64,000 nucleotides of DNA from Pseudocercospora fijiensis CIRAD86 (lineage: Eukaryota > Ascomycota > Dothideomycetes > Mycosphaerellales > Mycosphaerellaceae), in contig NW_006921533.1 in the NCBI RefSeq assembly GCF_000340215.1, positions 4,180,979 through 4,244,978 on the forward strand, given 5' to 3'. How positions within the stretch are numbered: the stretch's first letter is position 1; each line of letters opens with the position of its first letter. This document shows positions 11,092-48,759 of this stretch, in pieces. Position numbers and translations under genes: made by a program. The notes below the pieces were generated by a model. That model did not search any database, had not been told where the DNA came from, and worked only from the letters and a program-made list of their open reading frames with translations.

Positions 11092-11096
11092 GGAGT

Positions 11097-13790
11097 AAGG
11101 AGCAAACGGATACATTCTAGAAGTTCTTTATAGAGGGGGCATTATACCGTTATACGACTTCTCGACTTAAAGGTTAACTAGTAATTATCTACAACTTCTA
11201 CGGTTTAATCTTAAAATATCCGAAACTAGGGAATAGGAACTTATCGCCTACGAACTATCTCTATTCTAAACGGTATCGGGAATCTTAAGGAGAGAGGAGA
11301 GTTAATATAGATATAGCGTTCTAGAAAGAGGTACGTCTTCTAAAATGCCGGCTATAGCTGCCGGCTATAGCTACCGGCTATAGCTACCGGCTATAGATTC
11401 CGGCTACTTTAATTAACCGTAGAGATCTAGCTAATTATTATAGGCTACGCTTAAGGAAGCTCTAGGATTAAAGGCTACCGATTTCTCCCCTAAAGACTTT
11501 AAGTAACTAGTAAACGAAATGCTAGCTATAAACGGTCTTCCGGAAGACTTCTACGAAAGGGAGTCTATATAGAAGATATACCTATATCTTATAAACTACC
11601 TTCCCCTATTTCTCGGCGCGATAACCTAGCGTATTATATTCGAAAAGAATAAAAAGGCTACGTTAGACGATATTCGGGAGATCCTCCGTAATACTCGCCG
11701 AGTAGCTATTACTATCGATAGCTAGTTAAGCCGGACTATAAGAGCCTCCTTCCTCTCGATTATACTATACTTTATTAATTCGGATTAGAAACTCTAGGAA
11801 CTTATAATCGGATTCCCTAAAATTCTAGGTTCCTATACTAGTAAGGATATAGCGAAGCTTGTCTATACGGTAATAGATAGGGTTAGCGTAACAACGAAAC
11901 TAATCTCGATTACTACGGACAACGCTAGTAATAATCGAATATTGTATAAGGCGTTATATATACAATTCACTCGTATATATCTTTAAAATTACTAATTATA
12001 TCGATAGGGTCGAGTACGTAGAGGAGATTATAAGGTCTACAATCTAGCTTAATCTTCCGAATATTAAGCTCGCTACGATTCTAGATACGTACGATAATAC
12101 GTACGACGATAACGATAAAGAGGAGCCTAGTAATAGCCCTAGCCCTATTAAATCGGAGCCGACGTCGTTACTAGTTATATCCCTATAGAAGTTTCCCTAC
12201 CTCGCTTATATAGTTCAAATCGCGATCCGAGCCCTCTTTAAGACGCTTAAAATTGTACTATTAAACGACGACTAATAGAAGATCCTAGATAAGGATAAAG
12301 CAAAGTCGAAAGTCGAGAAACTCGTTATAGTAATAAGATAGGATAAGGCAGAGAGCCTCGCTCTCGTTTTATATAAGGTATAACTTTTGTCCGTAGCCGG
12401 CACCTATAGCCGGCAACCTAGTATAGTTCTAACTCTTTTTCTCTAGCTTCGTCGTCTAGTAATATATACGAACTCGAGCTTATAGAGATATAACCGATTC
12501 GAGGCTATTTAAAAGAACCTAATCGAGCGCCCTAAAACCGATGCCTAGAATATCGTATAGAATAAGCGATAGCAAAAGCGGCCTCCTTAGCGCCTACTCC
12601 GTTTTACCTAAGACGTTAAGACCCGGTTCGATTCGACTTTCTATATAGTTACGAGGGGATATACTTTATATACCGCTCTCGAGATCTATTAGAGTTCTAA
12701 GGGTATTAAGTAGCTCGGCCTTACTACCGCCGAATAGCGCTAAGCAGAGTATCTTGTCGATATTAGTAAGCATTACGCGTAGGTTACTACTACGATTAGA
12801 AGAATCCGAGGACCGACGATCTACCTTATCTTTACGTACTATAACTAGCTCTTTAACGAGCTCGAGGAAACCGTAGCTAAGCTAGCTAAGAAGAGCGTTC
12901 TCTAGAAAGTAGCTATAACGAAAGCTATAGACAGCTCCTATACTAAGTTGTATAAATATTATAGTACTACCTTTAAGTCGTTCGGGGATATCTATAGCGT
13001 TGCGTACTTGCTTAACCCGGTAGAAAAGGATATATACTAATAGAGGCCGGAATAGAAGGCGGACGAGGTATAGCCGAAGCATTACTAGACTATTCTAGAA
13101 AAGATATTCTACGAGCGTCGGAAAGAAACTAGTCTAAATACAGCTCCTATAAAGAAAAAGAAGGTTTAGAAGGCTCCGATATTATACCTATTTCGTAGGT
13201 AGGAAGTAGAGGTAGAAGAGGAAGCAACTACTAAAGGGAATAAAGAAGAGTTCGATCTCTATCGGCGCGCGAGTAAGTATAAATCCGTAGGCTCGGAAAG
13301 AGGGCTAATAATCTCTAGATCTTACCGGTCTTCTAAACGAATTCGGAGACGATATTCTCGCTATATAGTAGCGGTTAGAGCCTAAGTTTCTAACGATAGC
13401 GTCGGTCGCTTAGGACGTCCTCGCTATCCCGAGCGTAGGTATAGGCTATAAGAGGTCTTTTAGTATCGCTCGTTACTAGGGCCGCTTTAATCGAATATAC
13501 TCGCCTACTACCTTCGAATCTATTATAGTATTCCGATACTATCTCCTCTACTAGAGTCGCTAAGGTAGGTTACTAAAGATTATACTAAAGGAGTTAATCG
13601 AGGAATTAGAAAACCTTAAGATCGAAGAAATCTAGGAGCGCGAAGAGAATACGAAATTTAGTCTAAGCGAAACCCTAATTAGCGATAACGAAAAGGAGGA
13701 GGGCGGAGGTAGAAGGCGATACCGGGTCGAGAAGCGGAAACGTATATAGGCTTAGAGTAGCTTTAAGGAGACGAAGCGTTTACGTATAAG
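11097..13790 (+). pseudogene. hAT transposase remnant, copy 1
   Basis: A cut-and-paste transposase of the hAT superfamily, read through RIP stops. The central part (about 11700-11950) shows the hAT signature of a first catalytic Asp segment, then FINSD.KL.ELIIGFPEIL, GSYTSKDIAKLV and ITTDNASNN. The C-terminal dimerisation region (about 13330-13530) gives FPTIASVARDVLAIPSVGIG followed by ERSFSIAR. Two likely introns are visible. The first is 11331-11422 (GTACGT, branch TTAAC, TAG); the second is 12378-12446 (GTATAA ... CTCTAG). Both contain GCCGGC-motif arrays. The protein is typical for the family in length, but the copy has dozens of stops. Confidence 0.85.
11331..11422 (+). other. Putative intron of hAT transposase filled by GCCGGC repeats
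   Basis: It starts GTACGTCTTC, ends AATTAACCGTAG and has a TTAAC branch site. Between these lie five tandem copies of a unit close to GCCGGCTATAGCT. The equivalent in copy 2 is 37579-37657 with fewer repeat units, so the array length varies between copies while the splice signals persist. Confidence 0.65.
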
Positions 13791-13962
13791 GTAATATAGC
13801 CGGCGTATATAGCCGGTATATATCCGAAATGTGTTTCGAATTCCTAGGACCTAAACAGACTAGTTGCTATAGCAACCGACCCCGCTTACTTACGGACTAT
13901 TTCTAATTCTCTATTCGCTCTTCCTCTCCTTCTTCTCTTTCCCTATATTCTTAAAAACAAAT

Positions 13963-14810
13963 ATGCCTTAAGGATTCGGCTCTTCGGGCCTTCCTAAGCC
14001 GGCTACTTCCCCTTCTTTAAGCTACTATCCTTTATACGAATCTAACGATAACCTACTAAGGCGGTTTAATAGAGGACTATTTGTTCTAAAAGGTAAGAAG
14101 CATTAATATCTTCTTACGATTATATACTTATTAATTTTCTAGGTCCTATCGATATACCCTTATCGCCTAAACGCGTAGATAAATATCTTTAGAGGCTAAA
14201 GGGTAAGGGTAAAGTAAGCTAAGTATAGGGAGACCGTAGCGAGAACGAGATATCGGAAGAGTAAGGCTCTCCGTAGTATATACGAAGGAAGGAGGTTCCT
14301 CGGAAAACAGTACCGAAAAATAAGAAGGCTTTAGGTAGATAGGAGAAAGCTAAAAAGAGTAGGCGGACGAAGACTATCGCGAAGAAAAGTTATCTTTCTA
14401 TTAAAAAAAAGGGAATAAGGTAGGACTCGACGACAAAGAAGCGGCGCTTTAAACTAGATACTATTACCCTTCGCTAGATCCGGCTTTTCTAAAATAAAAG
14501 AGGGACCGAGCTTTTAATCCCTAAGACTCCCTTCTAGCGACTTGTCCGAGAAATTATATTAGATTTTCGGTCTAGTATACGATTTACGGCTAAGGCGATT
14601 AGTACTCTTTAGGAAGCTACGGAGGCATTTCTCGTAACCGAGCTTAAGCTTTTAAACCTCCTTACTATCTATACGAAGCGGGTTACTCTTTAAAATAAAG
14701 ATATATAGCTTCTAGCTAAAATTCGGCGTCGGTTTATAGCGGATTAGTTAGAAATTGTATTTAGTCGTTAGATTAACCTAGGAGGAGGCCTATTTTCGTA
14801 TCCTTTTGCC
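13963..14810 (+). pseudogene. Histone H3-like gene 1 (divergent), hAT copy 1
   Basis: A RIP-damaged gene whose product would have a long basic tail and then a histone H3 fold. It starts at ATG 13963 and has a first intron at 14093-14142 (GTAAGA ... TTCTAG). A Lys/Arg-rich tail of about 100 residues follows (for example TKTIAKKSYLSIKKKGIR). The fold at about 14436-14745 reads RRFKL.TITLR.IRLF, then TELLIPKTPF.RLVREI, AKAIS.L.EATEAFLV and TKRVTL.NKDI.LLAKIRRR, dots being stops or variable residues. These align in order and spacing with H3 helices alphaN to alpha3, including the QRLVREI and KRVT..KDIQL segments. There is no CENP-A-style loop-1 insertion. A C-terminal extension and another GCCGGC-bearing possible intron (about 14800-14860) follow. 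The function is unknown; this is inference from sequence similarity read by eye. Confidence 0.82.
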
Positions 14811-14970
14811 GGCTATAGGTGCTAGCTACATTTCTAATTTTATCTCCGCGCCGTCCCTAAATCTAAGGTACGAAGTAGAAACCTAGCGCTCTATATTTAC
14901 CCGGCTGTTATAGAGACGAGCTATATTTAGATTAGTTTCTTCGTATATCGCGACCTAGCGGGTAGTAAGC

Positions 14971-15275
14971 GAAAGGGCGATAGAACGTTTATAATACGTC
15001 TCTATTTAGACCTAAAATAGTATTAAAAATACAAAGGTCCTAAGGAGCCCTAGCATCCTAACTATAAGGAGATTCTTTAGTATTAGCACTTTGATCCTCT
15101 ATACTACGAGGTAGATAGCAAGCCTACGAAAGGGCGATAGAACGTTTATAATACGTCTCTATTTAGACCTAAAATACAAAGGTCCTAAGGAGCCCTAGTA
15201 TCTTAACTATAAGGAGATTCTTTAGCATTAGCACTTTGATCCTCTATACTATAAGGCAGATAGCAAGCCTACGAG
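14971..15275 (+). repeat. Local tandem duplication in hAT copy 1
   Basis: Two adjacent units, 14971-15127 and 15128-about 15275, both starting GAAAGGGCGATAGAACG. The first carries a short extra segment (TAGTATTAAAA-like). hAT copy 2 has this sequence only once (41211 onward), so the duplication arose in copy 1 after the copies separated. It lies downstream of histone H3-like gene 1, in a stretch that may encode its C-terminal extension. Confidence 0.8.
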
Positions 15276-16235
15276 AGAGAAACTTTAACGAGAAATTCTC
15301 TATAATGCGTAGCGCTATTATATAGCTATAGATACGTACTAAGTCCGGCAACTCGAAGAAGAATTAAGATAGCGTATTAGCGACCGAGGAGGAGATCGAT
15401 AGTATACTAGTAGAGTCGAGGTCTTATAAGCGAAGTATAAGATAATATAGGCTCTTAGTCGTATAGAGTAACGTACTATATAAATAAGTTAAAATAACTA
15501 GGCGTGCTACTCTTATTTACTTACGACCTATATCCTAGGATACTCTTCTCGTACTTTTTATACTCTTTTCTAATACCTTACCTATAAGCGCTCCGCGACA
15601 ACCGAGTAAATATAAGCTATAGGGTTTCCGCTCGGTACCTTAGCCTCCGAGATAGGGCGGAGTTAAATTTAGAGCGATAGCCGGCACTCGTAGCCGGTAT
15701 ATAGAGACGGTAGTAGGCCTTTTCCTACTAAATAACTAGCTTGTTTAGTATAGCCTACCTAATATTTCTTATATTTACTAGCAATAGGCCTAGGTTACTT
15801 ATAAGATTACTATAGCTAGTAAAGGCATTACTAAAGAATATCTATACTATAGTAGGATACTATTATTATACCGGCTATTTATTAAAAGGAGGCTTTCGCC
15901 TATTACTATACCGGCTATATATGCCGGCTATATTTCAAAGTCTACCGTACCTGCCTTTTTTAGCCGTACCTACCTTTTTTAGCCGTACCTGCCTTCTTTC
16001 CTTACTCTAACGTTACTATAATATAGGCTTGCGCGAAGCTTACTCTATTGCCTAGCGATACCGCGATACTACCTCTCTCGCTATATTTAACCTTCGTATC
16101 GATATCTATACCTCTACGCTCTATATCTACTACCTCTGTAATACCCTCGCTCCGCGCGCGCCTTCGTATACCTTCGTAACGCACTTTTTTCCTTAATTCG
16201 ACGACTTTTATAATAGCGAGTCTACTTAACTAAGT

Positions 16236-17100
16236 TACGACGCCTCGTAAGAAGGGACCTGCTACTTCTACGGGTCGCAACAAGATCGGAAATAATAGAA
16301 CGAGTATAGTATATTAACGTAAGAGGGCTGCTACTACTGCCGCTAGCTCCGGTACTAGAAAGGGCGTCGCGAGTAAGGCTCCGCGTAAGACAACGGCGGG
16401 CAAGGCTCTACGTAAGACAACAACTAGCGCTTCTACTACTAGTAGTAATCGTACGAAGCTTCGATAGCGCCTAGGAAGTAAGTCCTATTTATAGCCGGCA
16501 GCGTAGCCGGTAGCGTAGCCGGTAGCGTAGCCGGTATTCTTACTATCTTTTTACTAATCCTTCTTTAGCCGTAGCCCTCCGTAAGATTCGGTAGTATTAG
16601 AAGAGTTCTAAGCTCCTAATCTATAAAGCTCCTTTCTAACGACTTATTCGCGAAATTGCCTAGGATTATAGAACGGACCTTCGCTTCTAAGCCTCCGCGA
16701 TAGGCGCCCTTTAAGAGGCTATAGAAGCCTACCTAGTTCGTATCTTCGAATATATGTTTCTCTTCTACCTCTTTTCGGACTATACTAATACTATTTTAGC
16801 GGTCAACCTTATAGCTATCTACGCGAAGCGTATAACGATTATAGATAAGGATTTTAAAGCACTCGATCAGATTCTAAAAGGCTAGAATGTCTATATTCGA
16901 AATAGTACTAGATAGGATAGATATACTAGTAGGAAGGATATTCGTAGTATCGTCTATAAGCTTTTCTATATACGAAATAAGCCGCTATTATATAGCGCTG
17001 TATACCGCGCTCTAAATACTCTCTAAGTATACCTATATAGTATAGTATGCTTTATTAGCCGTATAGAATAGAAGTCTTCGAAAAACCCGTTAGTACTTAG
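16236..17100 (+). pseudogene. Histone H3-like gene 2 (near-canonical), hAT copy 1
   Basis: The tail (about 16236-16477) is rich in Lys/Arg/Ser/Thr and contains SKAPRKTTAGKALRK, like the STGGKAPRK tail of H3. Intron 1 is 16478-16568 (GTAAGT, branch TACTAATCC, end TTTAG). Splicing gives LGTVALRKIR, matching PGTVALREIR of canonical H3 exactly in phase. The fold continues with LLIYKAPF.RLIREIA, then DLRF.ASAIGAL.EAIEAYLV and RIFE. Intron 2 (16752-16799, a GTATGT donor with RIP-altered G, branch TACTAAT, end TTTAG) joins to VNLIAIYAKRITI and KDF. The reading then extends about 60-100 residues beyond a normal H3 C-terminus, ending in an unclear GCCGGCTAC-repeat region. The start codon is not determined. 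Confidence 0.88.
16478..16568 (+). other. Intron 1 of histone H3-like gene 2, with GCCGGC array (copy 1)
   Basis: A 91-bp intron defined by the flanking protein match: GTAAGT donor, TACTAATCC branch site and TTTAG acceptor. It holds four units of a 12-bp repeat close to AGCCGGTAGCGT. The counterpart in copy 2 is 42887-42977, also 91 bp. Confidence 0.85.
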
Positions 17101-17688
17101 GAGTAAAAAGGCCGACTACGCTGCCGGCTACGCTACCGGCTACGCTGCTAGGTCTTATAAAGAACTAAAAGAAGATAGACATTCTAGTTAATTTGTATTA
17201 GTTTGGATTTTTATAAAAAGAAAACAAGGAAAAAAGGAGGAAGATTAAAGAACCTAATACTTATAGTTATAGGCATTATCCCTGTTCTCTAGACTATATT
17301 ATATACCTACTTTCGCAACTCTACCTAATACTCCTACTAAATATCCTTATACTCTACCTACTAGAAATTCAACTAGGTACCTAGACCTATAGCTACCTCT
17401 ACATCTTTTACTATCTTCTATAGGTTAAAGGACTCCTCTATAGCAGCCTCTACTTCCTTATATAATACGAAGTTACTGCCTACCCTATCCTTAATATCTG
17501 CTAAATAACCTAGAGTTCTAAGGAACGAACTAGCATTCGGCCGTAGTATAGCGAGTAACTAGTAGAACGCCCTAATAGTTCGAACTAGCTACTTATATAG
17601 TTGCTTAGCAAACCAACCTAAACCAAACTAGAGTTTCGGCTTAGCAAACCAAACTAAACTAACCCGAACTACTGCGGGGTCTAGATTT
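17101..17688 (+). other. 3' end of hAT copy 1 with right terminal inverted repeat
   Basis: A GCCGGCTACGCT repeat run at about 17110-17150 is followed by AT-rich sequence without a recognised gene. The terminal block 17595-17683 (CTTAGCAAACCAA repeats, ending CGAACTACTGCGGGGTCT) matches the right end of copy 2. The last 19 bp mirror the left end of copy 2. Confidence 0.7.
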
Positions 17689-33930: not shown

Positions 33931-34673
33931 CTTATAAGTATTGTAGATAGCAATAGGACTATAATATCGACAAGCCTTAGTCGTCTAGTGCTCTTGCCTG
34001 CTATTAATAGGCTAATATTTGAACCCCTAAGCGGTCCTTACGTACTTATAGAGATAGTAACGTTAGCGTAGAAGAACAGCCTTTATTTAGTAGACGGCTT
34101 TGCTACTACGCTCGAGACGACGGAGGTTCTTAGCTATAGGTAAGCTATCGCCTTTCCTAATCTAATGTCGCCGAGATCGAGGTCTACTACTATTATAGGT
34201 GTAACCTAAGATAAATTAACTATAGCTTCGAGGAGGTAGCGGAGTCGGTATACGTAGAGCCCTTATAGCGGCCTCTGTTGCTTCTATCTTATTAAGCTCT
34301 TACTATCCGAGTTAGACTATTTGCTATGCTAGCGATATACGGAAGTCGCGCTAGTAAGTAAGTCGCTAGTCTTTAGTCTACTTCTTATCGCTACGGACGA
34401 GAACGAATAAGTTAATTACTATAGCATCTAGTAGGAAGTAGAATAGTAGATGCTAGCCCTTCCTTAACTTATACTAGGTTAAGCAATAATAGCGTAGCTA
34501 GTTATAGATGTTAATACTACCTATATAGTTATTATATAAGGCGGCAACCTCTAGAAGGTCCTTCTCTTCTTTGCTATCTGTCTTCTAGTATATTCGTACG
34601 TATTTGTCGATGTATGCGTTGTTTCCTACTCGAGGGCACCCTCGAAGCCGTCGTAATCGCTCGAATAGACGAC
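33900..34673 (-). pseudogene. piggyBac transposase, C-terminal part
   Basis: It continues the minus-strand frame interrupted at 44589. It gives LEVAALYNNYIGSINI at about 34540-34490, then LRKG.HPLFYFLLDAIVINL, the conserved C-terminal piggyBac segment (the NDYN..MGGVD..DQL and W.PLFYWLLD..I.N patterns). A shift-free join with the 44597-46250 part is obtained when hAT and one copy of TAGACGAC are removed. The Cys-rich tail usual at the C-terminus is not preserved clearly. Confidence 0.78.
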
Positions 34674-34678
34674 TCGTC

Positions 34679-34698
34679 TAGACCTCGCAGTAGTTCGG
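34679..34698 (+). repeat. Left terminal inverted repeat of hAT copy 2
   Basis: TAGACCTCGCAGTAGTTCGG. Two differences from the complement of the right end, both C/T. Confidence 0.85.
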
Positions 34699-34815
34699 TT
34701 TCCGAACTACCAAACGTATATAGTTTGGTTTCTTAGCGGCGAACTAGCTCCCTAGTTCCGGTTTAGTTTTTTCGAACTATATAGATTCCTAGTTTAAACT
34801 AGAGACTATATTAGT

Positions 34816-35125
34816 TTTACTATAAGGACACTCTTATTCGACTACCGGCTACGATTGCCGGCTATAATAGTAACTCTGTTACATTTACTACGCTCTTTTG
34901 CCGTTACTAGGGCGTAGTTGCTGTTGCTAGGGCGTAGTTGCCGTTACTAGGGCGTGGTTTTGCTATAAGGACACTCTTATTCGACTGCCGGCTACGATTG
35001 CCGGCTATAATAGTTACTAGGTTGTATTTACTACGCTTTATTACCGTTACTAGGGCGTGGTTGCCGTTGCTAGGGCGTAGTTGCCGTTGCTAGGGCGTAG
35101 TTGCTATTGCTAGGGCGTAGTTACC
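34816..35125 (+). repeat. Subterminal repeats of hAT copy 2
   Basis: Two diverged units of about 145-165 bp (starts near 34816 and 34959). Each contains TATAAGGACACTCTTATTCG, two GCCGGC palindromes, and then a run of a 20-bp repeat close to TTGCCGTTGCTAGGGCGTAG (about eight units in all). hAT transposases bind clustered short motifs near element ends, so these are candidate transposase-binding sites; that role is inferred. Confidence 0.8.
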
Positions 35126-35299
35126 GTAGTTGCGAAAGCTTACCTATATAACGTTACATAGGCGGCAATAATTAGGGCTTTGCGACATTCTTATACTTTT
35201 AACTTCTTCCTCTATACCTATACCGATAACAACTACTATACGCTGCGCCCCCGCCCCTTTCCCTTATAATAGTAAGAGAGAAGCGCGCCGCGCGCTAAA

Positions 35300-36830
35300 C
35301 AGAAGATAGAACTAAAGACCGCGAGTTTGTTTTGCCTAAGCGTCTAACTAAAAAGCGTAAGACTAAAGAGGAGTACTCTATAAAGAAGAATTCCGTACGA
35401 GACCGCGAGAGAAAGGACAAGATAGATAAGGATAAAAGAGCTAAGGATAAGAGAAGAAAGGCGCGGAATAAGGCATTCTATCGATAGCTAGCGCCTATAG
35501 AAAAAAGTAAAGGTTGGAATAAGAAGACAACCTAAGAGAAGGCTAAGAGGAGGAAAGAATTGCGGCTAGTTTTCGAGCGTAAAGTTCTAGTAGCGTAAGT
35601 TAATCTAGCTAGCGGCCGTAGCTAGCAGCTATAGCCGGCAGCCGTAGCCGGTAGCTATAGCCGGCATATTTTTCTTTAATACGTTAACTAATAGCATTCA
35701 GACCTATAGCCGCTACCTCTATCGATACGACCGATAGTAACGGAGATGTTTAGATAGCCGAGAACAACAATGCTAAAGTTTAGGATACCGCGATAGAGCT
35801 TAATACTACGAATAAAGGAACTAAAAAAAGCGAGGAGATACTATACGTCGATCTAGTAATAGGTACAGTCTTAGGGCCTAACGCTATAGACGATAAGCGC
35901 TAGGAGTAGATCGAGTATAGTTAAAGAGACGAGATACTAGTAAAGGGCTAAGGCATAAGTCCTATCAATCTAGAAAATTATAGTTAAAGCTACTACGAAA
36001 AGCTAGCAAGGATTGGAATCGAGACTAGTCGTCTTTATATCCTCGATATAGAGTAGAAGTTTCTTTATTAGTATTAGAGCGAAGCCTTTGCGTCTATAAA
36101 GGCAAAGTAGCTTGCGATTAATACGATCGGGGCTAGGTATCTAGGGACGGTAGAAGTGTTACTATAGGAGGAAGGGGTATAGGTAATTATTCTATACTCG
36201 GCATATATAGCCGGCGTTCGTAGCCGGCAGATACTAACAGTTAAATAGAAAGCGTTTCTCGAAGGCAGAGTGCTACTGCTATATAAAATCTTTACTAAGG
36301 CAGAGAGGGCTTATATCCGGAATCTAAGCTACTAGTAGGATAGGTTGGCGTTAGAATTCTCTAAATCTCTATATAAGCCTCCGAAGGATTACCTATTTTA
36401 GCGATACGGCTTTATCTCGACTACTCCGTAGGCACCTAAAGAAGCTCGAGCGCTCTTTAAGGTCTTTACTAAGAAGCGGAAGGAGTTCGAGGATTAGGAT
36501 TAGTTAATAGAGCTATTAGTTAGTCTTAGGTTTCGTAGTTAGACTCGGCCTAAGCATTTGCTTATCGAGTGTCTTATACCGAAAGAGGATAGATTAAGAC
36601 TAAAAACGAGCTTAGATTCGTTAGGTATAGTAGCTCGGTTCCGTTAGTAGGAGAGAGCCGCCGTATAGAAGGCAAAATTCAGGTAGTTAGGGTAGCTAGG
36701 AAAGAAATTCTAGTAGTTAGGCTAGCTAGGGTAGCTAGGAAAAAAAATCTAGTAGTTAGGTAGCTAGGAAACAAAAAAAAAAGGTAGCTAGCTATTTACT
36801 GCCTAGCTGTTCCTAACGATACGATGCTAT
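35300..36830 (+). pseudogene. Unrecognised basic gene of the hAT element
   Basis: RIP-damaged and present only in copy 2. The first exon is extremely Lys/Arg-rich (for example RKDKIDKDKRAKDKRRKARN at about 35410-35470). A probable intron at about 35622-35701 contains three GCCGGC units and ends ATTCAG. The next exon is more acidic and includes YYEKLARIGIETSRLYILDI, with an intron near 36195-36238 (GCCGGC pair, ACTAACAG). Later sequence (to about 36650) is again basic, followed by AGGAAAGAAATTC-type short repeats (36690-36790). No known family was recognised. It may be a DNA-binding accessory protein; that is a guess from composition. 36830-37290 holds a further partly open stretch of unknown meaning. 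Confidence 0.45.
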
Positions 36831-37289
36831 AAAAGAAAGGGTGTTTCTCTATAGCTACTAGTATATATCTACTACTCCTAAGTCCTTACCTTACCGTACG
36901 AGACCTTAAAACATACCGACCGACATTGTATATATACTAGGCGCTATACTAGGAAGGGTAACAACGAGACGACAGTCGAAACAGTCTAGTATACGAGCGA
37001 GATTGCGATAACGTCGAGAGGAGGTCGTATACTTACCTTCGAGCCTATCGAGTCCTAGACTACGATTAGGGCTAGATTTATCCTCTCCGAATCCTAGTAG
37101 TAGGAATTCATTATAGGGTACTACTACCTAGTCCTTACCTTTACGGAGTCTAAGTAGAAGGTTGTTCGGAGATATAAGAATATCGAGTATTAATCCGGAA
37201 ATCTTCGAAAAGGCTAGCTAGGCGTATCTTTAGAAACCCGAGTATATAGAGCAGTTTAATTAATAGGTCTATAAGATATAGTTCCCTTT

Positions 37290-40030
37290 ATACTTACGTT
37301 CGAAGGAGTATAAACTCTAGAAGTACTCGATGCGATAGGGGAGTAAGGAGCGAACGGATACATTCTAGAAGTTCTTTATAGAGGGGGCATTATACCGTTA
37401 TACGACTTCTCGACTTAAAGGTTAACTAGTAATTGTCTGTAACTTCTACGGTTTAATCTTGAAATACCCGAAACTAGGGGATAGGAACTTATCGCCTACG
37501 AACTATCTCTATTCTAAACGGTATCGGGAATCTTAAGAAGAGAGGAGAGTTAATATAGATATAGCGTTCTAGAAAGAGGTATATCTTCTAAAATGCCGGC
37601 TATAGCTACCGGCTATAGCTACCGGCTACAGATTCCGGCTACCTAAATCAACCGTAGAGATCTAGCTAATTATTATAGGCTACGCTTAAGGAAGCTCTAG
37701 GATTGAAGGCTACCGATTTCTCCCCCGAAGACTTTAAGCAACTAGCAAACGAAATACTAGCTATAAACGGTCTTCCGGAAGACTTCTACGAAAGGGAGTC
37801 TATATAGAAGACATACCTATATCTTATAAACTACCCTCCCCTATTTCTCGGCGCGATAACCTAGCGTATTATATTCGAAAAGAATAAAGAGGCTGCGTTA
37901 GACGACATTCGGGAGATCCTCCGTAATACTCGCTAAGTAGCTATTGCTATCGATAGCTAGTTAAGCCAGACTATAAGAGCCTCCTTCCTCTCGATTATGC
38001 TATACTTTATCAATTCGGATTAGAAACTCTAGGAACTTATAATCGGATTCCCTGAAATTCTAGGTTCCTATACTAGTAAGGATATAGCGAAGCTTGTCTA
38101 TACGGCAATAGATAGGGTTAGCGTAACAACGAAACTAATCTCGATTACTGCGGACAACGCTAGTAATAATCGAACATTGTATAAGGCGTTGTATATACAA
38201 TTCACTCGCATATGTCTTTAAAATTACTAATTGTATCGATAGGGTCGAGTACGTAGAGGAGATTATAAGGTCTACAATCTAGCTTAATCTTCCGAATATT
38301 AAGCTCGCTACGATTCCGGATACGTACGACAATACGCACGATAATAACGATAAAGAGGAGCCTATTAATAGCCCTAGCCCTATTAAATCGGAGCCGACGT
38401 CGTTGCTAGTTGCATCCCTATAGAAGTTTCCCTACCTCGCTTATATAGTTTAAATCGCGATCCGAGCCCTCTTTAAGACGCTTAAAATTGTACTATTAAA
38501 CGACGACTAATAGAAGATCCTAGATAAGGATAAAGCAAAGTTGAAAGTCGAGAAACTTATTATAGTAATAAGACGGGATAAGGCAGAGAGCCTCGCTCTC
38601 GTTTTATATAAGGTATAACTTTTGTCCGTAGCCGGTACCTATAGCCGGCAACCTAGTATAGTTCTAACTCTTTTTCTCTAGCTTCGTCGTCTAGTAATAT
38701 ATACGAACTCGAGCTTATAGAGATATAACCGATTCGAGGCTATTTAAAAGAACCTAATCGAGCGCCCTAAAACCGATGCCTAGAATATCGTATAGAATAA
38801 GCGATAGCAAAAGCGGCCTCCTTAGCGCCTACTCCGTTTTACCTAAGACGTTAAGACCCGGTTCGATTCGACTTTCTATATAGTTACGAGGGGATATACT
38901 TTACGTACCGCTCTCGAGATCTATTAGAGTTCCGAGGGTATTAAGTAGCTCGGCCTTACCGCCGCCGAATAGCGCTAAGCAGAGTATCTCGTCGATATTA
39001 GTAAGCATTACGCGAAGGTTACTGCTACGATTAGAAGAACCCGAGGACCGACGATCTACCTTATCTTTGCGTACTATAACTAGCTCTTTAACGAGCTCGA
39101 GGAAACCGCAGCTAAGCTAGCTAAGAAGAGCGTTCCCTAGAAAGTAGCTATAACGAAAGCTATAGACACCTCCTATACTAAGTTGCATAAATATTACAGT
39201 GCTACCTTTAACTCGTTCGGGGATATCTATAGCGTTGCGTGCTTACTTAACCCGGTAGAAAAGGATATATACTAGTAGAGGCTAGAATAGAAGGCGGACG
39301 AGGTATAGCCGAAGTATTACTAGACTATTCTAGAAAAGATGTTCTACGAGCGTCGGAAAGAAACTAGTCTAAATGCAGCTCCTATAAAGAAAAAGAAGGT
39401 TTAGAAGGCTCCGATATTATACCTGTTTCGTAGGTAGGAAGTAGAGGCAGAAGAGGAAGCAACTACTAAAGTAAATAAAGAAGAGTTCGATCTCTATCGG
39501 CGCGCGAGTAAGTATAAACCCGTAGGCTCGGAAAGAGGGCTAATAATCTCTAGATCTTACCGGTCTTCTAGACGAATTCGGAGACGATATTCTCGCTATA
39601 TAGCAGCGGTTAGAGCCTAAGTTTCTAACGATAGCGTCGGTCGCTCGGGACGTCCTCGCTATCCCGAGCGTAGGTATAGGCTATAAGAGGTCTTTTAGTA
39701 TCGCTCGTTACTAGGGCCGCTTTAATCGAACATACTCGCCTACTACCTTCGAATCTATTATAGTATTCCGATACTATCTCCTCTACTAGAATCGCTAAGG
39801 TAGGTTACTAAAGATTATACTAAAGGAGTTAATCGAGGAATTAGAAAACCTTAAGATCGAAGAAACCTAGGAGCGCGAAGAGAATACGAAATTTAGTCTA
39901 AGCGAAACCCTAATTAGCGATAACGAAGAGGAGGAGGGCGGAGGTAGAAGGCGATACCGGGTCGAGAAGCGGAAACGTATATAGGCTTAGAGCAGCTTTA
40001 AGGAGACGAAGCGTTTACGTATAAGGTAAT
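37290..40030 (+). pseudogene. hAT transposase remnant, copy 2
   Basis: Collinear with 11097-13790. It includes ITADNASNN (near 38145) and the C-terminal dimerisation block with FPTIASVARDVLAIPSVGIG and ERSFSIAR (39590-39720). Introns correspond to 37579-37657 and 38613-38681, both with GCCGGC units. At some positions copy 2 keeps C or G where copy 1 has T or A (for example GCGGACAACGC against ACGGACAACGC), so it is slightly less mutated. It still has many stops and is inactive. Confidence 0.85.
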
Positions 40031-40197
40031 ATAGCCGGCGTATATAGCCGGCATATGTCCGAAATGTGTTTCGAATTCCTAGGACCTAAACAGACTAGTT
40101 GCTATAGCAACCGACCCCGCTTACCTACGGACTATTTCTAATTCTCTATTCGCTCTTCCTCTCCTTCTTCCCTTTCCCTATATTCTTAAAGACAAAC

Positions 40198-41060
40198 ATG
40201 CCTTAAGGATTCGGCTCTTCGGGCCTTCCTAAGCCGGCTGCCTCCCCTTCCTTAAGCTACTATCCTTTATTCGAATCTAACGATAACCTAATAAGGCGGT
40301 TTAATAGAAGACTATTTGTTCTAGAAGGCAAGAAGCATTAATGTCTCCTTACGATTATATGCTTATTAATTTCTAGGTCCTACCGATATGCCCTCGTCGC
40401 CTAAACGCGCAGATAAATATCTTTAGAGGCTAAAGGGCAAGGGTAAAGTAAGCTAAGTATAGGGAGACCGTAGCGAGAACGAGATATCGGAAGAGCAAGG
40501 CTCTCCGTAGTATATACGAAGGAAGGGGGTTCCTCGGAAAATAGTACCGAAAAATAAGAAGGCTATAGGTAGATAGGAGAAGGCTAAAAAGAGTAGGCGG
40601 ACAAAGACTATCGCGAAGAAAAGTTATCTTTCTATTAAAAGAAAGGGAATAAGGCAGGACTCGACGATAAAGAAGCGGCGCTTTAAACTAGGTACTATTA
40701 CCCTTCGCTAGATCCGGCTTTTCTAAAACAAAAGAGGGACCGAGCTTTTAATCCCTAAGACTCCCTTCTAGCGACTCGTCCGAGAAATTACATTAGATTT
40801 TCGGTCTAGTATGCGATTTACGGCTAAAGCGATTAGTGCTTTTTAGGAAGCTACGGAGGCATTTCTCGTAACCGAGCTTAAGCTTTTAAACCTCCTTACT
40901 ATCTATACGAAGCGGGTTACTCTTTAAAATAAAGATATACAGCTTCTAGCTAAAATTCGGCGTCGGTTTATAGCGGATTAGTTAGAAATTGTATTTAGTC
41001 GTTAGATTAACCTAGGAGGAGGCCTATTTTCGCATCGTTTTGCCGGCTATAGGTACCGGC
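40198..41060 (+). pseudogene. Histone H3-like gene 1 (divergent), hAT copy 2
   Basis: Counterpart of 13963-14810. It starts at ATG 40198, with TAA (from CAA) as third codon. An intron follows the first exon, with GCAAGA as donor where copy 1 has GTAAGA. After the basic tail the H3 fold (about 40670-40980) reads RRFKLGTITLR.IRLF, then TELLIPKTPF.RLVREI, MRFTAKAIS, EATEAFLV and TKRVTL.NKDIQLLAKIRR. Most dots are TAG or TAA where H3 has Gln (positions of REIRRYQ, PFQRL, ALQEA). This fits RIP of Gln codons in a former functional H3-like gene. The fold spacing equals canonical H3 except for about one extra residue before TELLI. Confidence 0.85.
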
Positions 41061-41371
41061 TACATTTCTAATTTTATCTCCGCGCCGTCCCTAAATCTAA
41101 GGTACGAAGTAGAAACCTAGCGCTCTATATTTACCCGGCTATTACAGAGACGAGCTATATTTAGATTAGTTTCTTCGCATATCGCGACCTAGCGGGTAGT
41201 AAGCGAAAGGGCGATAGAACGTTTATAATACGTCTCTATTTAGACCTAAAACACAAAGGTCCTAAGGAGCCCTAGCATCCTAACTATAAGGAGATTCTTT
41301 AGTATTAGCACTTTAATCCTCTATACTACGAGGCAGATAGCAAGCCTACGAGAGAGAAACTTTAACGAGAA

Positions 41372-42093
41372 ATTCTCTATAATACGTAGCGCTATTGCAT
41401 AGCTATAGATGCGCACTAAGTCCGGCAACTCGAAGAAGAATTAAGACAGCGTATTAGCGACCGAGGAGGAGATCGATAGTATACTAGTAGAGTCGAGGTC
41501 TTATAAGCGAAGCATAAGATAATATAGGCTCTTAGTCGTATAGAGTAACGTACTATATAAATAACTAGGCGTACTACTCTTATTTACTTACGACCTATAT
41601 CCTAGGATGCTCTTCTCGTACTTTTTATACTCTTTTCTAATACCTTACCTATAAGCGCTCCGCGACAACCGAGTAAATATAAGCTGTCGGGTTTCCGCTC
41701 GGTACCTTAGCCTTCGAGATACGGCGGAGTTGATTCTCTATAATACGTAGCGCTATTATATAGCTATAGATGCGCACTAAGTCCGGTAACTCGAAGAAGA
41801 ATTAAGACAGCGTATTAGCGACCGAGGAGGAGATCGATAGTATACTAGTAGAGTCGAGGTCTTATAAGCGAAGTATAAGATAATATAGGCTCTTAGTCGT
41901 ATAGAGTAACGTACTATATAAATAACTAGGCGTGCTACTCTTATTCACTTACGACCTATATCCTAGGATACTCTTCTCGTACTTTTTATACTCTTTTCTA
42001 ATACCTTACCTATAAGCGCTCCGCGACAACCGAGTGAATATAAGCTATAGGGTTTCCGCTCGGTACCTTAGCCTCCGAGATAGGGCGGAGTTG
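41372..42093 (+). repeat. 361-bp tandem duplication in hAT copy 2
   Basis: Units 41372-41732 and 41733-42093, both beginning ATTCTCTATAATACG. Copy 1 has this segment once. It lies between the two histone H3-like genes, in a stretch with no recognised domain, so it is independent of the different duplication seen in copy 1. Confidence 0.88.
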
Positions 42094-42639
42094 AATTTAG
42101 AGCGATAGTCGGCACCCGTAGCCGGCATATAGAGACGGTAGTAGGCCTTTTTCTGCTAAATAACTAGCTTGTTTAGTATAGCCTACCTGATATTTCTTAT
42201 ATTTACTAGCAATAGGCCTAGGTTACTTATAAGATTACTATAGCTAGTAAAGGCATTACTAAAGAATATCTATACTATAGTAGGATACTATTATCACGCC
42301 GGCTATTTATTAAAAGGAGGCTTTCGCCTATTACTATGCCGGCTACATATACCGGCTATATTTCAAAGTCTGCCGTACCTGCCTTTTTTAGCCGTGCCTG
42401 CCTTCTTTCCTTGCTCTAACGTTACTATAATATAGGCTTACGCGAAGCTTACTCTGTTACCTAGCGATACCGCGATACTACCTCTCTCGCTATATTCAAC
42501 CTTCGTATCGATACCTATACCTCTACGCTCTATATCTACTACCTCCGTAATACCCTCGCTCCGCGCGCGCCTTCGCATACCTTCGTAACGTACTTTTTTC
42601 CTCAATTCGACGACTTTTATAATAGCGAATCTACTTAAC

Positions 42640-43510
42640 TAAGTTACGACGCCTCGTAAGAAGGGACCTGCTACTTCTACGGGTCGTAACAAGATCGGAA
42701 ATAAAGGAACGAGTATAGTACATTAACGTAAGATAGCTACTACTACTGCCGCTAGCTCCGGTACTAGAAAGGGCGTCGCGAGCAAGGCTCCGCGTAAAAC
42801 AACGGCGGGCAAGGCTCTACGTAAGACGACAACTAGCGCTTCTACTACTAGTAGTAATCGTACGAAGCGTCGATAGCGCCTAGGAAGTAAGTCCTATTTA
42901 TAGCCGGCAGCGTAGCCGGCAGCGTAGCCGGCAGCGTAGCCGGCATTCTTACTGTCTTTTTACTAATCCTTCTTTAGCCGTAGCCCTCCGTAAGATTCGG
43001 TAGTATTAGAAGAGTTCTAAGCTCCTAATCCGCAAAACTCCTTTCTAACGACTTGTTCGCGAAATTGTCTAGGATTATAGAATAGACCTTCGCTTCTAAG
43101 CCTCCGCGATAGGCGCCCTTTAAGAGGCTATAGAAGCCTACCTAGTTCGTATCTTCGAATATATATTTCTCTTCTACCTCTTTTCGGACTATACTAATAC
43201 TATTTTAGCGGTTAACCTTATAGCTATCTACGCGAAGCGTATAACGATTATAGACAAGGATTTCAAAGCACTCGATTAGATCCTAAAAGGCTAGAATATC
43301 TACATTCGAGATAGTGCTAGATAGGATAGATATACTAATAGGAAGGATATTCGTAGTGTCGTCTGCAAGCTTTTCTATATACGAAATAAGCCGCTATTAT
43401 ACGGCGCTGCATACCGCGCTCTAAATACTCTCTAAGCATATATATATAGTATAGTATACTTTATTGGCCGTACGGAATAGAAGTCTCCGAAAATCCCGTT
43501 AGTACTAAGG
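42640..43510 (+). pseudogene. Histone H3-like gene 2 (near-canonical), hAT copy 2
   Basis: The best preserved of the four histone-like genes. The basic tail contains SKAPRKTTAGKALRK. Intron 1 (42887-42977) splices to LGTVALRKIR, and the fold follows as KSSKLLIRKTPF.RLVREIV, then DLRF.ASAIGAL.EAIEAYLV and RIFE. Intron 2 (43161-43208, donor GT lost by RIP, branch TACTAAT, acceptor TTTAG) joins to VNLIAIYAKRITI and KDF. Each segment has the length of canonical H3. The frame continues past the normal end with about 60 residues (FYIRNKPLLYGAAYRALNTL) and then a GCCGGCTACGCT array that would read as AGYA repeats. The start is unclear, since no ATG survives at the expected place. Confidence 0.9.
42887..42977 (+). 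other. Intron 1 of histone H3-like gene 2, with GCCGGC array (copy 2)
   Basis: GTAAGT donor, TACTAATCC branch, TTTAG acceptor; four exact AGCCGGCAGCGT-type units inside. The exon junction is fixed by the H3 match on both sides. Confidence 0.87.
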
Positions 43511-43984
43511 AGTAAAAAGGCCGGCTACGCTGCCGGCTACGCTGCCGGCTACGCTGCTAGCTACGCTGCTAGGTTTTTTAAAGAACTAAAAGAAGATAGA
43601 CATTCCGGTTAATTTGTATTAGTTTAGATTTTTATAAAAAGAAAATAGGGAAAAATAAGGAAGGTTAAAGAGCCTAATAGTCATAGTTATAGGCACTATC
43701 CCTGTTTTCTAGAGCATATTATATACCTGCCTTCGCAACTCTACCTAATACTCCCTCTAAATATCCTTATACTCTACCTACTAGAAATTCAACTAGGTAC
43801 CTAGACCTGTAGCTGCCTCTATATCTTTTACTATCTTCTATAGGTTGAAGGCCTCTTCTATAGCAGCCTCTACCTCCTTATATAATACGAAGTTACTACC
43901 TGCCCTACCCTTTATATCTCCTAAATAACTAAGAGTTCTAAGGAACGAACTAGCATTCGGCCTTAGTATAGCGAGTAACTAGTG

Positions 43985-44473
43985 GAACGTTCTATAGAGC
44001 TGCCTTATAGCTCTTTTATATACTATGCCGATACCGAGGGAGGAGCTATCCTAGTACTTAATATTATCGAATAGTTCGGTAGGAAAGTATATAAACTTCT
44101 TAAGGAGGAGGACTTCTAGGGAAATCGATAAGTTCTACCTAGATCTAGATAAAGACATTCTACTAAGCAGTTAGGGAATTGAACCGTAAACGAAAGGATA
44201 AAATTTATACCTAAGGAGTGCAGTTTCCGAACTAAACTATAATGCCTTATATATATATATGTGCTTTTAATTAGTTAGTGCCCTTAGCTAATTATCTATA
44301 GATTTAAGGTTATATAAGTACCTTTATACAACTACGTAGCCTAAGTAGGATTCGAAAATTCTATAAGTACTAAGGACTAAAAATGCCGGCTACGCTACCG
44401 GCTACACTACTAAGTCTTACAAAGGGCTTGCTTGAAGCTACGTATACATTCGTATACTTCTTAAAAACCGATA
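43985..44473 (+). other. Segment near the right end present only in hAT copy 2
   Basis: About 490 bp absent from copy 1, where the flanking sequences meet directly near 17562. It contains a short TA run (44230-44250) and a GCCGGCTACGCT pair (44385-44410). No gene or terminal repeat was recognised. It may be an insertion in copy 2 or a deletion in copy 1. Confidence 0.6.
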
Positions 44474-44568
44474 AATTATATAGTTCGAACCAGCTACTTA
44501 TATAGTTGCTTAGCAAACCAACCTAAACCAAACTAGAGTTTCGGCTTAGCAAACTAAACCAAACTAAC

Positions 44569-44588
44569 CCGAACTACTACGGGGTCTA
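44569..44588 (-). repeat. Right terminal inverted repeat of hAT copy 2
   Basis: CCGAACTACTACGGGGTCTA, the complement of the left end apart from two transitions. Followed by the 8-bp duplication TAGACGAC. Confidence 0.85.
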
Positions 44589-44596
44589 TAGACGAC

Positions 44597-46329: not shown

Positions 46330-46713
46330 AACCGAGTCCAATTGAGGCCTGTTCATTTATATACAGAGCGGCTTCTATATGCTAACTAAGTGGACACTGT
46401 AGGGGTTGATGCCTGTTTTGCCGACGAACGCTCCGAGGCGACGAGTTTTTACAGGGGATATGACAGCTCTTATCGCCGGCATCTGAGCACCCACAGGACA
46501 GGGCAGGACAGCCACACGCGAGCAGGCTGGCAAGCGCAAGCGTAAGCGCAAGCGCACGCAGGTCGGGGCACGACGACGCGCATATTACCATTACGGAGTT
46601 GACTCGCGAATGGTCCGGATGTCGACGTGCTGCTTGCGCTTCTGGCCAACGTCAACGCCACGTCCGGTGCGACCTTCGCTACCGCCGCCGCCGCCGCCGC
46701 CCCTCCACGGGCG
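46330..46713 (+). promoter_or_regulatory. Upstream region of the Zn2Cys6 gene
   Basis: Unmutated sequence between the piggyBac border and the first in-frame ATG. It includes a GCAAGCG-type repeat (46529-46553). In the transcription-factor frame a stop lies at 46600, and no ATG occurs before 46714. No clear TATA box was seen. A piggyBac-like element ends only about 390 bp upstream of the start codon, so part of the original promoter may have been displaced. Confidence 0.45.
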
Positions 46714-48759
46714 ATGACCCATGACAGCATGACTGGGACGTCGAAGAATAGCCGGCCAGGCCACCACGATGCACCGACTACAAAGCGCGGCCGCCCATGC
46801 GACGCTTGCAGACGACGTAAATCTAAGTGTGTCACCGAGGACGGCAGCGCCATCTGCGTCCTGTGCAAGTTCCATGGCCAGCAGTGCACTTACCTGGAAG
46901 CACCGCAGCCCAGGAAGCGCTCTGCCAATCCGAGCAGTGCAGCAGAAGTGCAGGTGCAGTCGCCCACCAAGCGGAGATTCCTCAACCTCAAGCCCGGAAC
47001 CGGTGTGGAAGAATACCATACGCTCCCCGGACCCTCGCTCCTCAAACACACTCTCGGATTGCAGAACCGTCACCACACGGAATACCTCGGACTCAACGCA
47101 ATCCCAGACGTCTACGGTGGCCAAATCCTCGACCCAAGCGACTGCGCGAGCTCCCATACCAAGAATGCGCTGCACGACGACGTGAGGTTTGTCCATCCAC
47201 ATCATGCATTTCGCCTTCTGCAGGACAGCCAAACCGAGGGCTACCGCCAGGAGCAATCTGACGTAGATGAGATTGAAGCTACAGCCTCTGGACACGGTCC
47301 GCATCTCGTGCAACTGTACTTCCGTATTGTACACCCGAGCTTTCCAATTCTACACAAGCATGTATTCCTGGAGAAATACGCACGCTCGCACCGCGAATTT
47401 GCCCCGCCTTTATTAGCTGCAGTGTATCTGCTCGCGTCCGGATACTGGTCTTACGATGAGAAATTGGCCAAGAGTCGCAGGATAGACACCGCGGCCCTCC
47501 AAAATCTAGCCTTCAGTGCGCTGCAAAATACTATGCGGAGACCAAAGCTGTCCACCATTCAGGCCGGTCTACTGCTCTCTCAATGGCAAAAGGCCTTCAT
47601 GGGCTCGCCATACGAGCAGCGCGATCGTCTGACCGTGCAGCTCGTCAATCTCTCACATGGCCTTGGTCTCCATTTGGACTGCTCGTACTGGGACATCCCT
47701 GATTGGGAGATTGGCCTGAGGAGACGTATTGGTTGGGCGCTGTATATGCAAGACAAGTGGACAGCGCTATTGGAAAGTCGCCCATCACTTATCAGTCAAG
47801 ATGAATGGGACGTGGAAGAACTGTCAGAAATCGACTTCCCTGACACTACCGAGGACGACCAGGAAGGCAGTAGCGAGGTCGAGCGCGGCCGCTTGGTCTT
47901 TCAGCACATGGCTCGCCTGTCCGTAATACTAGGTGAGATTCTGAGAACCATTTTCTCGGCAAGAGCGAGAAAGGTTCTCGACGCTGCGCCTAACAGGCTT
48001 GAGCATCTGTTGGAATGGATCAAACCGGTTCAGATCAGGTTGAAGGAATGGTTTCTGACATTGCCTGACTCGCTCAAGATGGATACAGCAGCTTCTATGA
48101 AGCTCTCCTCCGTCGGCTATCTCCGTTTGTCCTACCTCACTGTGGAAGTTTGCATGCATAAGAACCTTATCCGAGCCCTCGTGGCCACAGACCACCCTGC
48201 TCCAACAGTTACGCAAGTCTGCAGAAGCGCTGCCAACGAACGCTTCACTAATGCTACCGACTTCATTCAGCGACTTCAGGCGCAGCATTTGCACTCATTC
48301 TGGTACTTTGCCTCCGCTAAATGTTGTGCGCTGATCCATTCATTTGGTCAGATCCTGGCCTCCACTGCTCTCGCTGAAGAAGAGCAGGTCTTGTACTCAC
48401 GCAAGCTGAAGGAATTCAAATGGGCATTGAAAGTCAACAGTGAGGCAGGAGCAAGCTTTATGAAGCAAGCCTTGATCTTGATCAACCACTCGGTCCGTCT
48501 AATACAGCAAGGACCCGAGAATGGGACGACGAACACAAGCCCCGCGTCGGTTGGATTTCAGATGCCCGGCCAGGAGATGCAGTCGCCCGAACAGCAGAGC
48601 CAATGGCTACCACATCACCCGGTGCAGAATGGCGGGATGCACTACGACGCTTACCACGCCGAGTACCCTTCGATCGATCAGGCAACATTTCACGATGATA
48701 ATATGTTTGGTAATTTTCCGGAAGAATTGAATGGTGCCTGGATGCACGACATGAGATGA
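46714..48759 (+). CDS. Zn2Cys6 fungal transcription factor
   Basis: A 681-residue nuclear regulator, intact and without visible introns. I choose ATG 46714 because the longer open frame begins only at a GTG. The binuclear cluster lies at residues 29-58 (CDACRRRKSKC ... CVLCKFHGQQC, spacing C-x2-C-x6-C-x8-C-x2-C-x6-C), preceded by basic KRGRP, as usual for DNA-binding GAL4-type proteins. A fungal_trans middle domain spans roughly residues 195-380 (LYFRIVHPSFPILHKHVFLE, then AGLLLSQWQKAF and GLRRRIGWALYMQDKW). The stretch LLKHTLGLQNRHHTEYLG resembles the segment after the finger in DAL81/TamA-type nitrogen regulators; orthology is not established. The C-terminus is Gln/His-rich and acidic, a possible activation region. 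Its codons and dinucleotides show no RIP. Confidence 0.93.
   Translation: MTHDSMTGTSKNSRPGHHDAPTTKRGRPCDACRRRKSKCVTEDGSAICVLCKFHGQQCTYLEAPQPRKRSANPSSAAEVQVQSPTKRRFLNLKPGTGVEEYHTLPGPSLLKHTLGLQNRHHTEYLGLNAIPDVYGGQILDPSDCASSHTKNALHDDVRFVHPHHAFRLLQDSQTEGYRQEQSDVDEIEATASGHGPHLVQLYFRIVHPSFPILHKHVFLEKYARSHREFAPPLLAAVYLLASGYWSYDEKLAKSRRIDTAALQNLAFSALQNTMRRPKLSTIQAGLLLSQWQKAFMGSPYEQRDRLTVQLVNLSHGLGLHLDCSYWDIPDWEIGLRRRIGWALYMQDKWTALLESRPSLISQDEWDVEELSEIDFPDTTEDDQEGSSEVERGRLVFQHMARLSVILGEILRTIFSARARKVLDAAPNRLEHLLEWIKPVQIRLKEWFLTLPDSLKMDTAASMKLSSVGYLRLSYLTVEVCMHKNLIRALVATDHPAPTVTQVCRSAANERFTNATDFIQRLQAQHLHSFWYFASAKCCALIHSFGQILASTALAEEEQVLYSRKLKEFKWALKVNSEAGASFMKQALILINHSVRLIQQGPENGTTNTSPASVGFQMPGQEMQSPEQQSQWLPHHPVQNGGMHYDAYHAEYPSIDQATFHDDNMFGNFPEELNGAWMHDMR

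What the first reader, a model, noticed from the sequence alone, without database searches (positions are those of the whole stretch)
34679..44588. A hAT DNA transposon carrying two histone H3-like genes
Within clear hAT boundaries (inverted ends, 8-bp TAGACGAC on both sides, hAT transposase) lie two genes downstream of the transposase whose products match the histone H3 fold. The same two genes, in the same order and orientation, are in the second copy (13963-17100). They therefore moved with the element and are not two chance insertions. Known families: hAT transposases with a C-terminal dimerisation domain; core histone H3. Inference: the element may have used its own H3 variants to influence chromatin, silencing or centromere-like packaging of its DNA or target. 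I know of no described hAT with histone cargo, but could not search.
Basis: partly seen in the sequence, partly recalled or inferred. Interest (0 to 1): 0.95.

Follow-up and report, generated by a model that had tools for sequence, protein, structure and literature searches.

The report
Histone H3 genes riding a transposon
This is a fungal jumping gene (a hAT DNA transposon) that carries two genes derived from histone H3 and has spread them through the genome, where the copies are now broken, most likely by the fungus's repeat-mutation defence; the element is almost certainly one already published, but at least one of its histone genes was probably still a working gene while it rode the transposon.

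Summary
Window 34679-44588 is a 9.9-kb hAT element with 20-bp inverted ends and two H3-derived genes (folds about 40691-40983 and 42978-43280). Both match the host's H3 strongly (91 and 85 bits; 200 shuffles reached at most 25.4). Of 20 other copies, chosen by their 5' end, 17 carry gene 1 and 15 gene 2. In 12 of 13 copies with both ends the 8-bp target duplications are identical.
It fits the H3-carrying hAT of Pseudocercospora fijiensis of Dhillon et al. 2019 (784 H3-like copies in 471 elements). A different H3-carrying hAT was reported in Pyrenophora tritici-repentis in 2013.
Added here: the "16-residue insertion" of gene 2 looks like a 48-nt intron, and a second predicted intron precedes the fold, so gene 2 is no simple retrocopy. 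The gene-2 fold shows moderate evidence of purifying selection between two element subfamilies (transversion dN/dS 0.27-0.31, p 0.003-0.008). If contig numbers equal scaffold numbers, 11 of 12 subfamily-2 copies lie on putatively dispensable scaffolds. A chromatin role is untested.

The parts
34679..34698 (+). 5' terminal inverted repeat of the hAT element
   Evidence: copies were chosen by this end; 8-bp target duplications in 12 of 13 copies with both ends
34666..34673 (.). TAGACGAC, probable left member of the target-site duplication, displaced by 5 bp (TCGTC) from the element end
   Evidence: Sequence; flush flanks differ in this copy
35300..40000 (+). transposase region, broken by stops
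   Evidence: hAT dimerisation motif at 39604-39711 (E 0.004) and RNase H-like match at 38033-38218 (E 0.025), both below the curated cut-offs
40577..41002 (+). H3-like gene 1 (fold about 40691-40983), no intron at the host's exon 2/3 junction; 6 in-frame stops; true start not determined
   Evidence: tblastn 91 bits; PF00125 E 1.1e-21; frame with stops
41375..42094 (+). direct duplication of about 360 bp between the two H3 genes
   Evidence: dup_A and dup_B cross-match at 96.7%
42640..42886 (+). H3-like gene 2, exon with the basic N-terminal tail (contains SKAPRKTTAGKALRKT)
   Evidence: translation with stops shown
42887..42977 (+). predicted intron 1 of H3-like gene 2 (GTAAGT...TACTAAT...TTTAG), contains a GTAGCCGGCAGC minisatellite
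   Evidence: sequence; same donor in 4 of 4 subfamily-2 copies printed, acceptor visible in 3 of them
42978..43160 (+). H3-like gene 2, first part of the histone fold
   Evidence: tblastn 85 bits; transversion dN/dS 0.27-0.31 between subfamilies
43161..43208 (+). predicted intron 2 (48 nt) of H3-like gene 2; the published '16-residue insertion'
   Evidence: GT donor intact in 5 of 15 fetched copies that hold the place and in neither window copy; branch-like CTAAT, TTTTAG acceptor
43209..43290 (+). H3-like gene 2, last part of the histone fold
   Evidence: tblastn
44569..44588 (+). 3' terminal inverted repeat
44589..44596 (.). TAGACGAC, right member of the target-site duplication
11092..17683 (+). 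second copy of the element in the window, 5'-truncated, carrying both H3-like genes
   Evidence: BLAST of element segments

Best explanation
This is a hAT DNA transposon of about 9.5-9.9 kb that carries two histone H3-derived genes between its inverted ends and multiplied them with itself, after which RIP, the fungal repeat-mutation defence, most likely filled transposase and histone genes with stop codons; before that, at least the second H3 gene likely worked as a gene of the element. Shown here: the ends and target duplications, the H3 homology, the fixed order of the genes across copies and across two diverged subfamilies, stops that are almost all TAG or TAA, and transversion-based constraint on the fold of gene 2. 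Inferred: the host is Pseudocercospora fijiensis; an H3 gene was captured by the element in an ancestor; gene 2 is spliced; the H3-like proteins would enter nucleosomes and help the element, for example by loosening chromatin over its own copies.
For: Ends and target duplications. Of 20 copies chosen by their 5' end, gene 1 is in 17 and both genes in 15; three (L035, L037, L039) lack everything after part of the transposase region, and L034 and L043 lack gene 2 (L043 ends in masked letters). In 20 of the 40 5' ends listed a PF00125 match lies 5.7-6.4 kb downstream on the same strand (22 of the 150 matches were entered by hand, the rest checked by eye; a lower bound, as 622 of 772 candidates were not scored). 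H3 matches of 91 and 85 bits against at most 25.4 in 200 shuffles. Of 150 PF00125 matches 148 contain stops, and one of them a TGA (counted by eye). Fold of gene 2 between subfamilies: transversions synonymous 11 per 49 sites, nonsynonymous 10 per 167, ratio 0.27, p 0.003; fixed differences only, 17 against 4 copies: 10 per 49 and 11 per 175.5, ratio 0.31, p 0.008. Controls: a transposase piece 0.31 (p 0.03), its C-terminal part 0.56 (p 0.30); two stretches upstream of gene 1 1.35 and 2.28. The six indels between L003 and the window in the H3 coding alignments are multiples of three (one in gene 1; five in gene 2). Literature: Dhillon et al. 2019.
Against: Gene 1 shows no significant constraint between subfamilies (4 synonymous, 7 nonsynonymous transversions, ratio 0.47, p 0.19), nor does the tail of gene 2 (1.19, p 0.70). 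Fixed against polymorphic transversions do not differ significantly (Fisher p 0.41). Three coding stretches were tested between subfamilies, so the p-values need a factor of about three; comparisons with the host H3 (gene 1 0.55, p 0.04; gene 2 0.48, p 0.008) and between the genes (0.62, p 0.08) are less telling because the host branch is itself constrained. Subfamily 2 is represented by four copies for gene 2 and one for gene 1; L049 is one base out of step, so at least one copy has an indel that breaks the frame. Only two of the 150 scored PF00125 matches are free of stops, and both are ordinary host genes. No expression or chromatin data.
Confidence: 0.62

Rival explanations
1. Dead passenger: a housekeeping H3 transcript was captured by chance (transduplication), gave the element nothing, and was amplified and destroyed by RIP (the published reading).
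For: Gene 1 lacks the host intron at the exon 2/3 junction; all scored element copies are broken; constraint on gene 1 not significant; authors' own analysis.
Against: Gene 2 has two predicted introns, one where the host H3 has none. Its fold is about as constrained as a transposase piece between two subfamilies that both carry it.
Confidence: 0.35
2. Two separate captures (compatible with the best explanation): gene 1 from a processed H3 transcript and gene 2 from an intron-containing H3 gene, possibly of another fungus.
For: Gene 1 has no intron where gene 2 and the host have one; gene 2's predicted intron is three bases from the host's. The two genes differ at 39 of 72 compared residues.
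Against: Duplication inside the element followed by intron loss or gain gives the same pattern; no tree was built because the copies are broken.
Confidence: 0.35
3. The H3 genes belong to a separate element nested in an ancestral hAT copy.
For: None found; the 360-bp duplication between the genes was the only candidate.
Against: 15 of 20 copies and L003 of the other subfamily hold both genes in the same order. I saw no inverted ends or target duplications around them, but ran no dedicated search.
Confidence: 0.03
4. Chance matches of repeat-mutated sequence to the H3 profile.
For: None.
Against: 91 and 85 bits against at most 25.4 bits in 200 dinucleotide shuffles.
Confidence: 0.01

Closest known systems
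H3-carrying hAT of Pseudocercospora fijiensis (Dhillon et al. 2019, PMC6710886)
   Same: Almost certainly this element: about 74-Mb genome, 9.5-9.9 kb, 20-bp inverted ends, 8-bp duplications, two H3-like genes per full-length element, stops of the RIP kind, original three-exon H3 of 136 residues on scaffold/contig 6.
   Different: The paper reports no introns in the H3-like copies and explains the 16-residue insertion as a mutation; here both interruptions in gene 2 look like introns. The dimerisation domain it could not find gives a weak match here. Its Table 1 compares element H3 with the host H3; I saw no test between element lineages in the parts read, and the word 'subfamily' does not occur in the main text.
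hAT with H3L in Pyrenophora tritici-repentis (Manning et al. 2013, PMC3538342)
   Same: hAT element with inverted ends that carries an H3-like gene neither canonical H3 nor CenH3.
   Different: 5.6 kb or 2.3 kb, one H3L, mostly intact and with ESTs; Dhillon et al. found no similarity between its sequence and their hAT consensus sequences.
Pack-MULE-type transduplication in plants
   Same: Transposon spreading captured host genes (as discussed).
   Different: Pack-MULEs are Mutator-like and mostly carry fragments without a transposase (recalled).

Membership tests
hAT DNA transposon | Short terminal inverted repeats | tested here: met
   20-bp ends; 5' end in all 20 copies (chosen by it), 3' end in 13 of 20
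hAT DNA transposon | 8-bp target-site duplication | tested here: met
   12 of 13 copies with both ends; the window copy has a 5-bp offset on the left
hAT DNA transposon | Transposase with C-terminal dimerisation domain | tested here: inconclusive
   Window 39604-39711 matches PF05699 at 17.3 bits, cut-off 21.4; not in the genome-wide list; PF04937 has no match in the element
Core histone H3 | Histone fold matching H3 | tested here: met
   91 and 85 bits by tblastn with the host H3; PF00125 E 1.1e-21 for gene 1
Core histone H3 | Conserved H3 N-terminal tail | tested here: not met
   Tail of gene 2 is basic with one H3-like stretch but otherwise different; tail of gene 1 is divergent
CENP-A / CenH3 | Best match to the centromeric H3 and longer loop 1 | tested here: not met
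   75.5 and 58.2 bits against 91.3 and 85.1 for canonical H3; the four loop-1 residues extra in the host CENP-A-like protein are absent
Dhillon et al. 2019 element | 9.5-9.9 kb, two H3-like genes, RIP-type stops, original H3 on scaffold 6 | tested here: met
   Lengths 9537-9921 bp in the 13 copies with both ends
Dhillon et al. 2019 element | H3-like copies intronless (retrocopy) | tested here: inconclusive
   Met for gene 1 at the exon 2/3 junction; gene 2 has two intron-like interruptions, but splicing is predicted, not shown

The most novel reading that the evidence does not exclude
The H3 genes are long-standing genes of the transposon itself: a hAT lineage that encoded its own H3 variants, kept them under selection while it split into subfamilies, and used them to alter chromatin over its copies or targets. 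H3 capture by hAT elements in two fungal orders would then be a recurrent strategy rather than an accident.
Probability: 0.35. Interest if true: 0.8.

Novelty: already known. Interest (0 to 1): 0.4.

Why it matters
The element itself is known. If the signs of selection on gene 2 hold up, the story changes from a housekeeping gene carried by accident to a transposon that keeps a histone of its own. The mostly intact H3L genes of Pyrenophora tritici-repentis would make that testable.

Tried and rejected
Profiles PF05699 and PF04937 over the whole genome did not pick out this element's transposase; single open pieces gave only sub-threshold matches. Centromeric H3 origin was tested and disfavoured. 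Nesting in a separate element was considered and found unsupported. Look-alikes of the 48-nt intron were sought in the sequences held (not in the whole genome): 23 matches with at most 9 mismatches, 22 with the gene-2 flank on the left and one (L052) at the very edge of its stretch, so no sign of a mobile intron. Cross-species comparison was not possible: no fungal relatives are held and a full-length query would need reading through stops, so the large protein search was not used. No structure was predicted because every element copy held is broken. Two literature searches returned nothing; three others gave, besides the two known papers, no further hAT with histone cargo in the rows listed (6 of 6, 12 of 73 and 15 of 90 papers), except that led to a 2026 paper that cites Dhillon et al..
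Full report
What is there. Window 34679-44588 is a complete hAT-type element. Its 20-bp ends are inverted repeats. Twenty other copies were fetched, chosen from the 40 places that match the 5' end; a right end was found in 13 of them, and 12 of these 13 have identical 8-bp flanks. The window copy is slightly irregular: TAGACGAC abuts the right end, but on the left it lies 5 bp outside the element. Lengths of the 13 copies with both ends are 9537-9921 bp, and a duplication of about 360 bp between the two H3 genes explains most of the difference.

The H3 genes. The host's intact H3 protein (L001, three exons, 136 residues) aligns to the element at two places with 91 and 85 bits, while the best of 200 shuffles gives 25.4. 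The host's CENP-A-like protein aligns less well (75.5 and 58.2 bits), and both element genes lack four of its loop-1 residues. Gene 1 is present in 17 of 20 copies and gene 2 in 15 of 20. Three copies lack everything after part of the transposase region within the stretch fetched; L034 and L043 lack gene 2 only, and L043 ends in masked letters. In the genome, the PF00125 search had 772 candidates of which 150 were scored; 148 of the 150 contain stops, and of these one contains a TGA, the rest only TAG and TAA (counted by eye). These are the stops that RIP (C to T at CpA) makes; the dinucleotide test itself is published and was not repeated here.

Already known. Contig 1 is 11.88 Mb, the genome 73.94 Mb, and the intact three-exon H3 lies on contig 6. 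These agree with P. fijiensis CIRAD86 (about 74 Mb, largest scaffold 11.8 Mb; passages of PMC4981457) and with Dhillon et al. 2019, of which I read abstract, background, results, part of the discussion and methods and passages. They report 784 H3-like copies in 471 elements, 20-bp ends, 8-bp duplications and RIP in all copies but the original. Manning et al. 2013 (passages and the first of two parts of the transduplication section) describe an H3-carrying hAT in Pyrenophora tritici-repentis with mostly intact H3L and ESTs, and themselves raise altered chromatin as a possibility. A 2026 paper on the genus cites the 784 copies (passages). The species name remains an inference from these matches.

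What is added: introns. Dhillon et al. report an insertion of 16 residues in the second copy and no introns. That insertion is 48 nt at window 43161-43208. Of 15 fetched copies that hold the place, 5 have an intact GT donor there; the other 10, and both window copies, do not, through a change of the RIP type. It has a TACTAAT or TGCTAAT branch-like motif and ends TTTTAG. The host H3 has no intron there. A second interruption, GTAAGT...TACTAATCC...TTTAG (42887-42977), lies three bases from the host's second intron; four of four subfamily-2 copies printed have the same donor, and the acceptor is visible in three. Gene 1 has no intron at the exon 2/3 junction. Splicing is predicted, not shown. 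The 48-nt stretch has no transversion between 17 and 4 copies in 48 sites, fewer than expected from synonymous sites; L052, left out there because its match is partial, differs at 8 of 48. I have no explanation.

What is added: subfamilies and constraint. Locus L003 belongs to a diverged subfamily: 82% identical at gene 1, 86% over the end of the transposase region, 72% at the first exon of gene 2. Both subfamilies hold both H3 genes, so the genes were most likely in the element before they split. RIP makes only transitions, so I used transversions. Fold of gene 2: ratio 0.27 (p 0.003) for one pair and 0.31 (p 0.008) for fixed differences between 17 copies of subfamily 1 and 4 of subfamily 2 (L052 dropped). 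Gene 1: 0.47, p 0.19; tail of gene 2: 1.19, p 0.70. Against the host H3: gene 1 0.55 (p 0.04), gene 2 0.48 (p 0.008); gene 1 against gene 2: 0.62 (p 0.08). Yardsticks: transposase pieces 0.31 (p 0.03) and 0.56 (p 0.30); two stretches upstream of gene 1, in arbitrary frame, 1.35 (p 0.77) and 2.28 (p 0.90). Polymorphic transversions (2 synonymous, 6 nonsynonymous) do not differ significantly from the fixed ones (Fisher p 0.41). Indels between L003 and the window in the H3 coding alignments total 21 nt in gene 1 (split 1+20 by the aligner) and 9, 12, 3, 3 and 3 nt in gene 2; L049 is one base out of step in the gene-2 stretch, so that copy has a frame-breaking indel. I read this as moderate evidence that gene 2 was a working gene inside the element, with gene 1 undecided.

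Mechanism. Most likely an ancestral hAT captured H3 sequence, at least one derivative stayed a working gene of the element, the element multiplied, and RIP then broke the copies. What the H3-like protein did is unknown; incorporation into nucleosomes on element copies is the simplest guess and is untested. A passenger that gave no benefit remains possible.

Verdict. A real and striking object, almost certainly already published; interest rests on the revised reading of gene 2.

Noticed in passing
G000 C11, C12, C17, C20, C23: Subfamily 2 of the element (12 places at 89-100% identity, next match 80%; 40 of 604 candidates scored) lies on C23 (5), C20 (3), C17 (2), C11 (1) and C12 (1). If contig numbers equal scaffold numbers, 11 of 12 are on scaffolds outside the core set 1-10, 12, 19 given in PMC4981457.
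   Followed up: partly
window 43161-43208: The 48-nt predicted intron has no transversion between the subfamilies in the copies counted, although the flanking exon positions have 25 fixed ones; unexplained.
   Followed up: partly
window about 42900-42953, 43520-43573, 37594-37642, 38628-38654 and others: A GTAGCCGGCAGC-type minisatellite recurs in intron-like and spacer parts of the element.
   Followed up: no
window 41375-42094: A direct duplication of about 360 bp that some copies have once and others twice.
   Followed up: partly
window 34666-34680: TAGACGACTCGTCTA at the left junction is a 7-bp inverted repeat around one base; the extra TCGTC could be a repair scar of transposition.
   Followed up: no
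L047 1698-2220 (G000:C5): An intact CENP-A-like gene of the host, two exons, 154 residues as predicted from GT-AG borders.
   Followed up: partly
window 46627-48759: Long open frame in a GC-rich island with a Zn2Cys6-type motif (CDACRRRKSKC, recalled) suggesting a fungal transcription factor.
   Followed up: no
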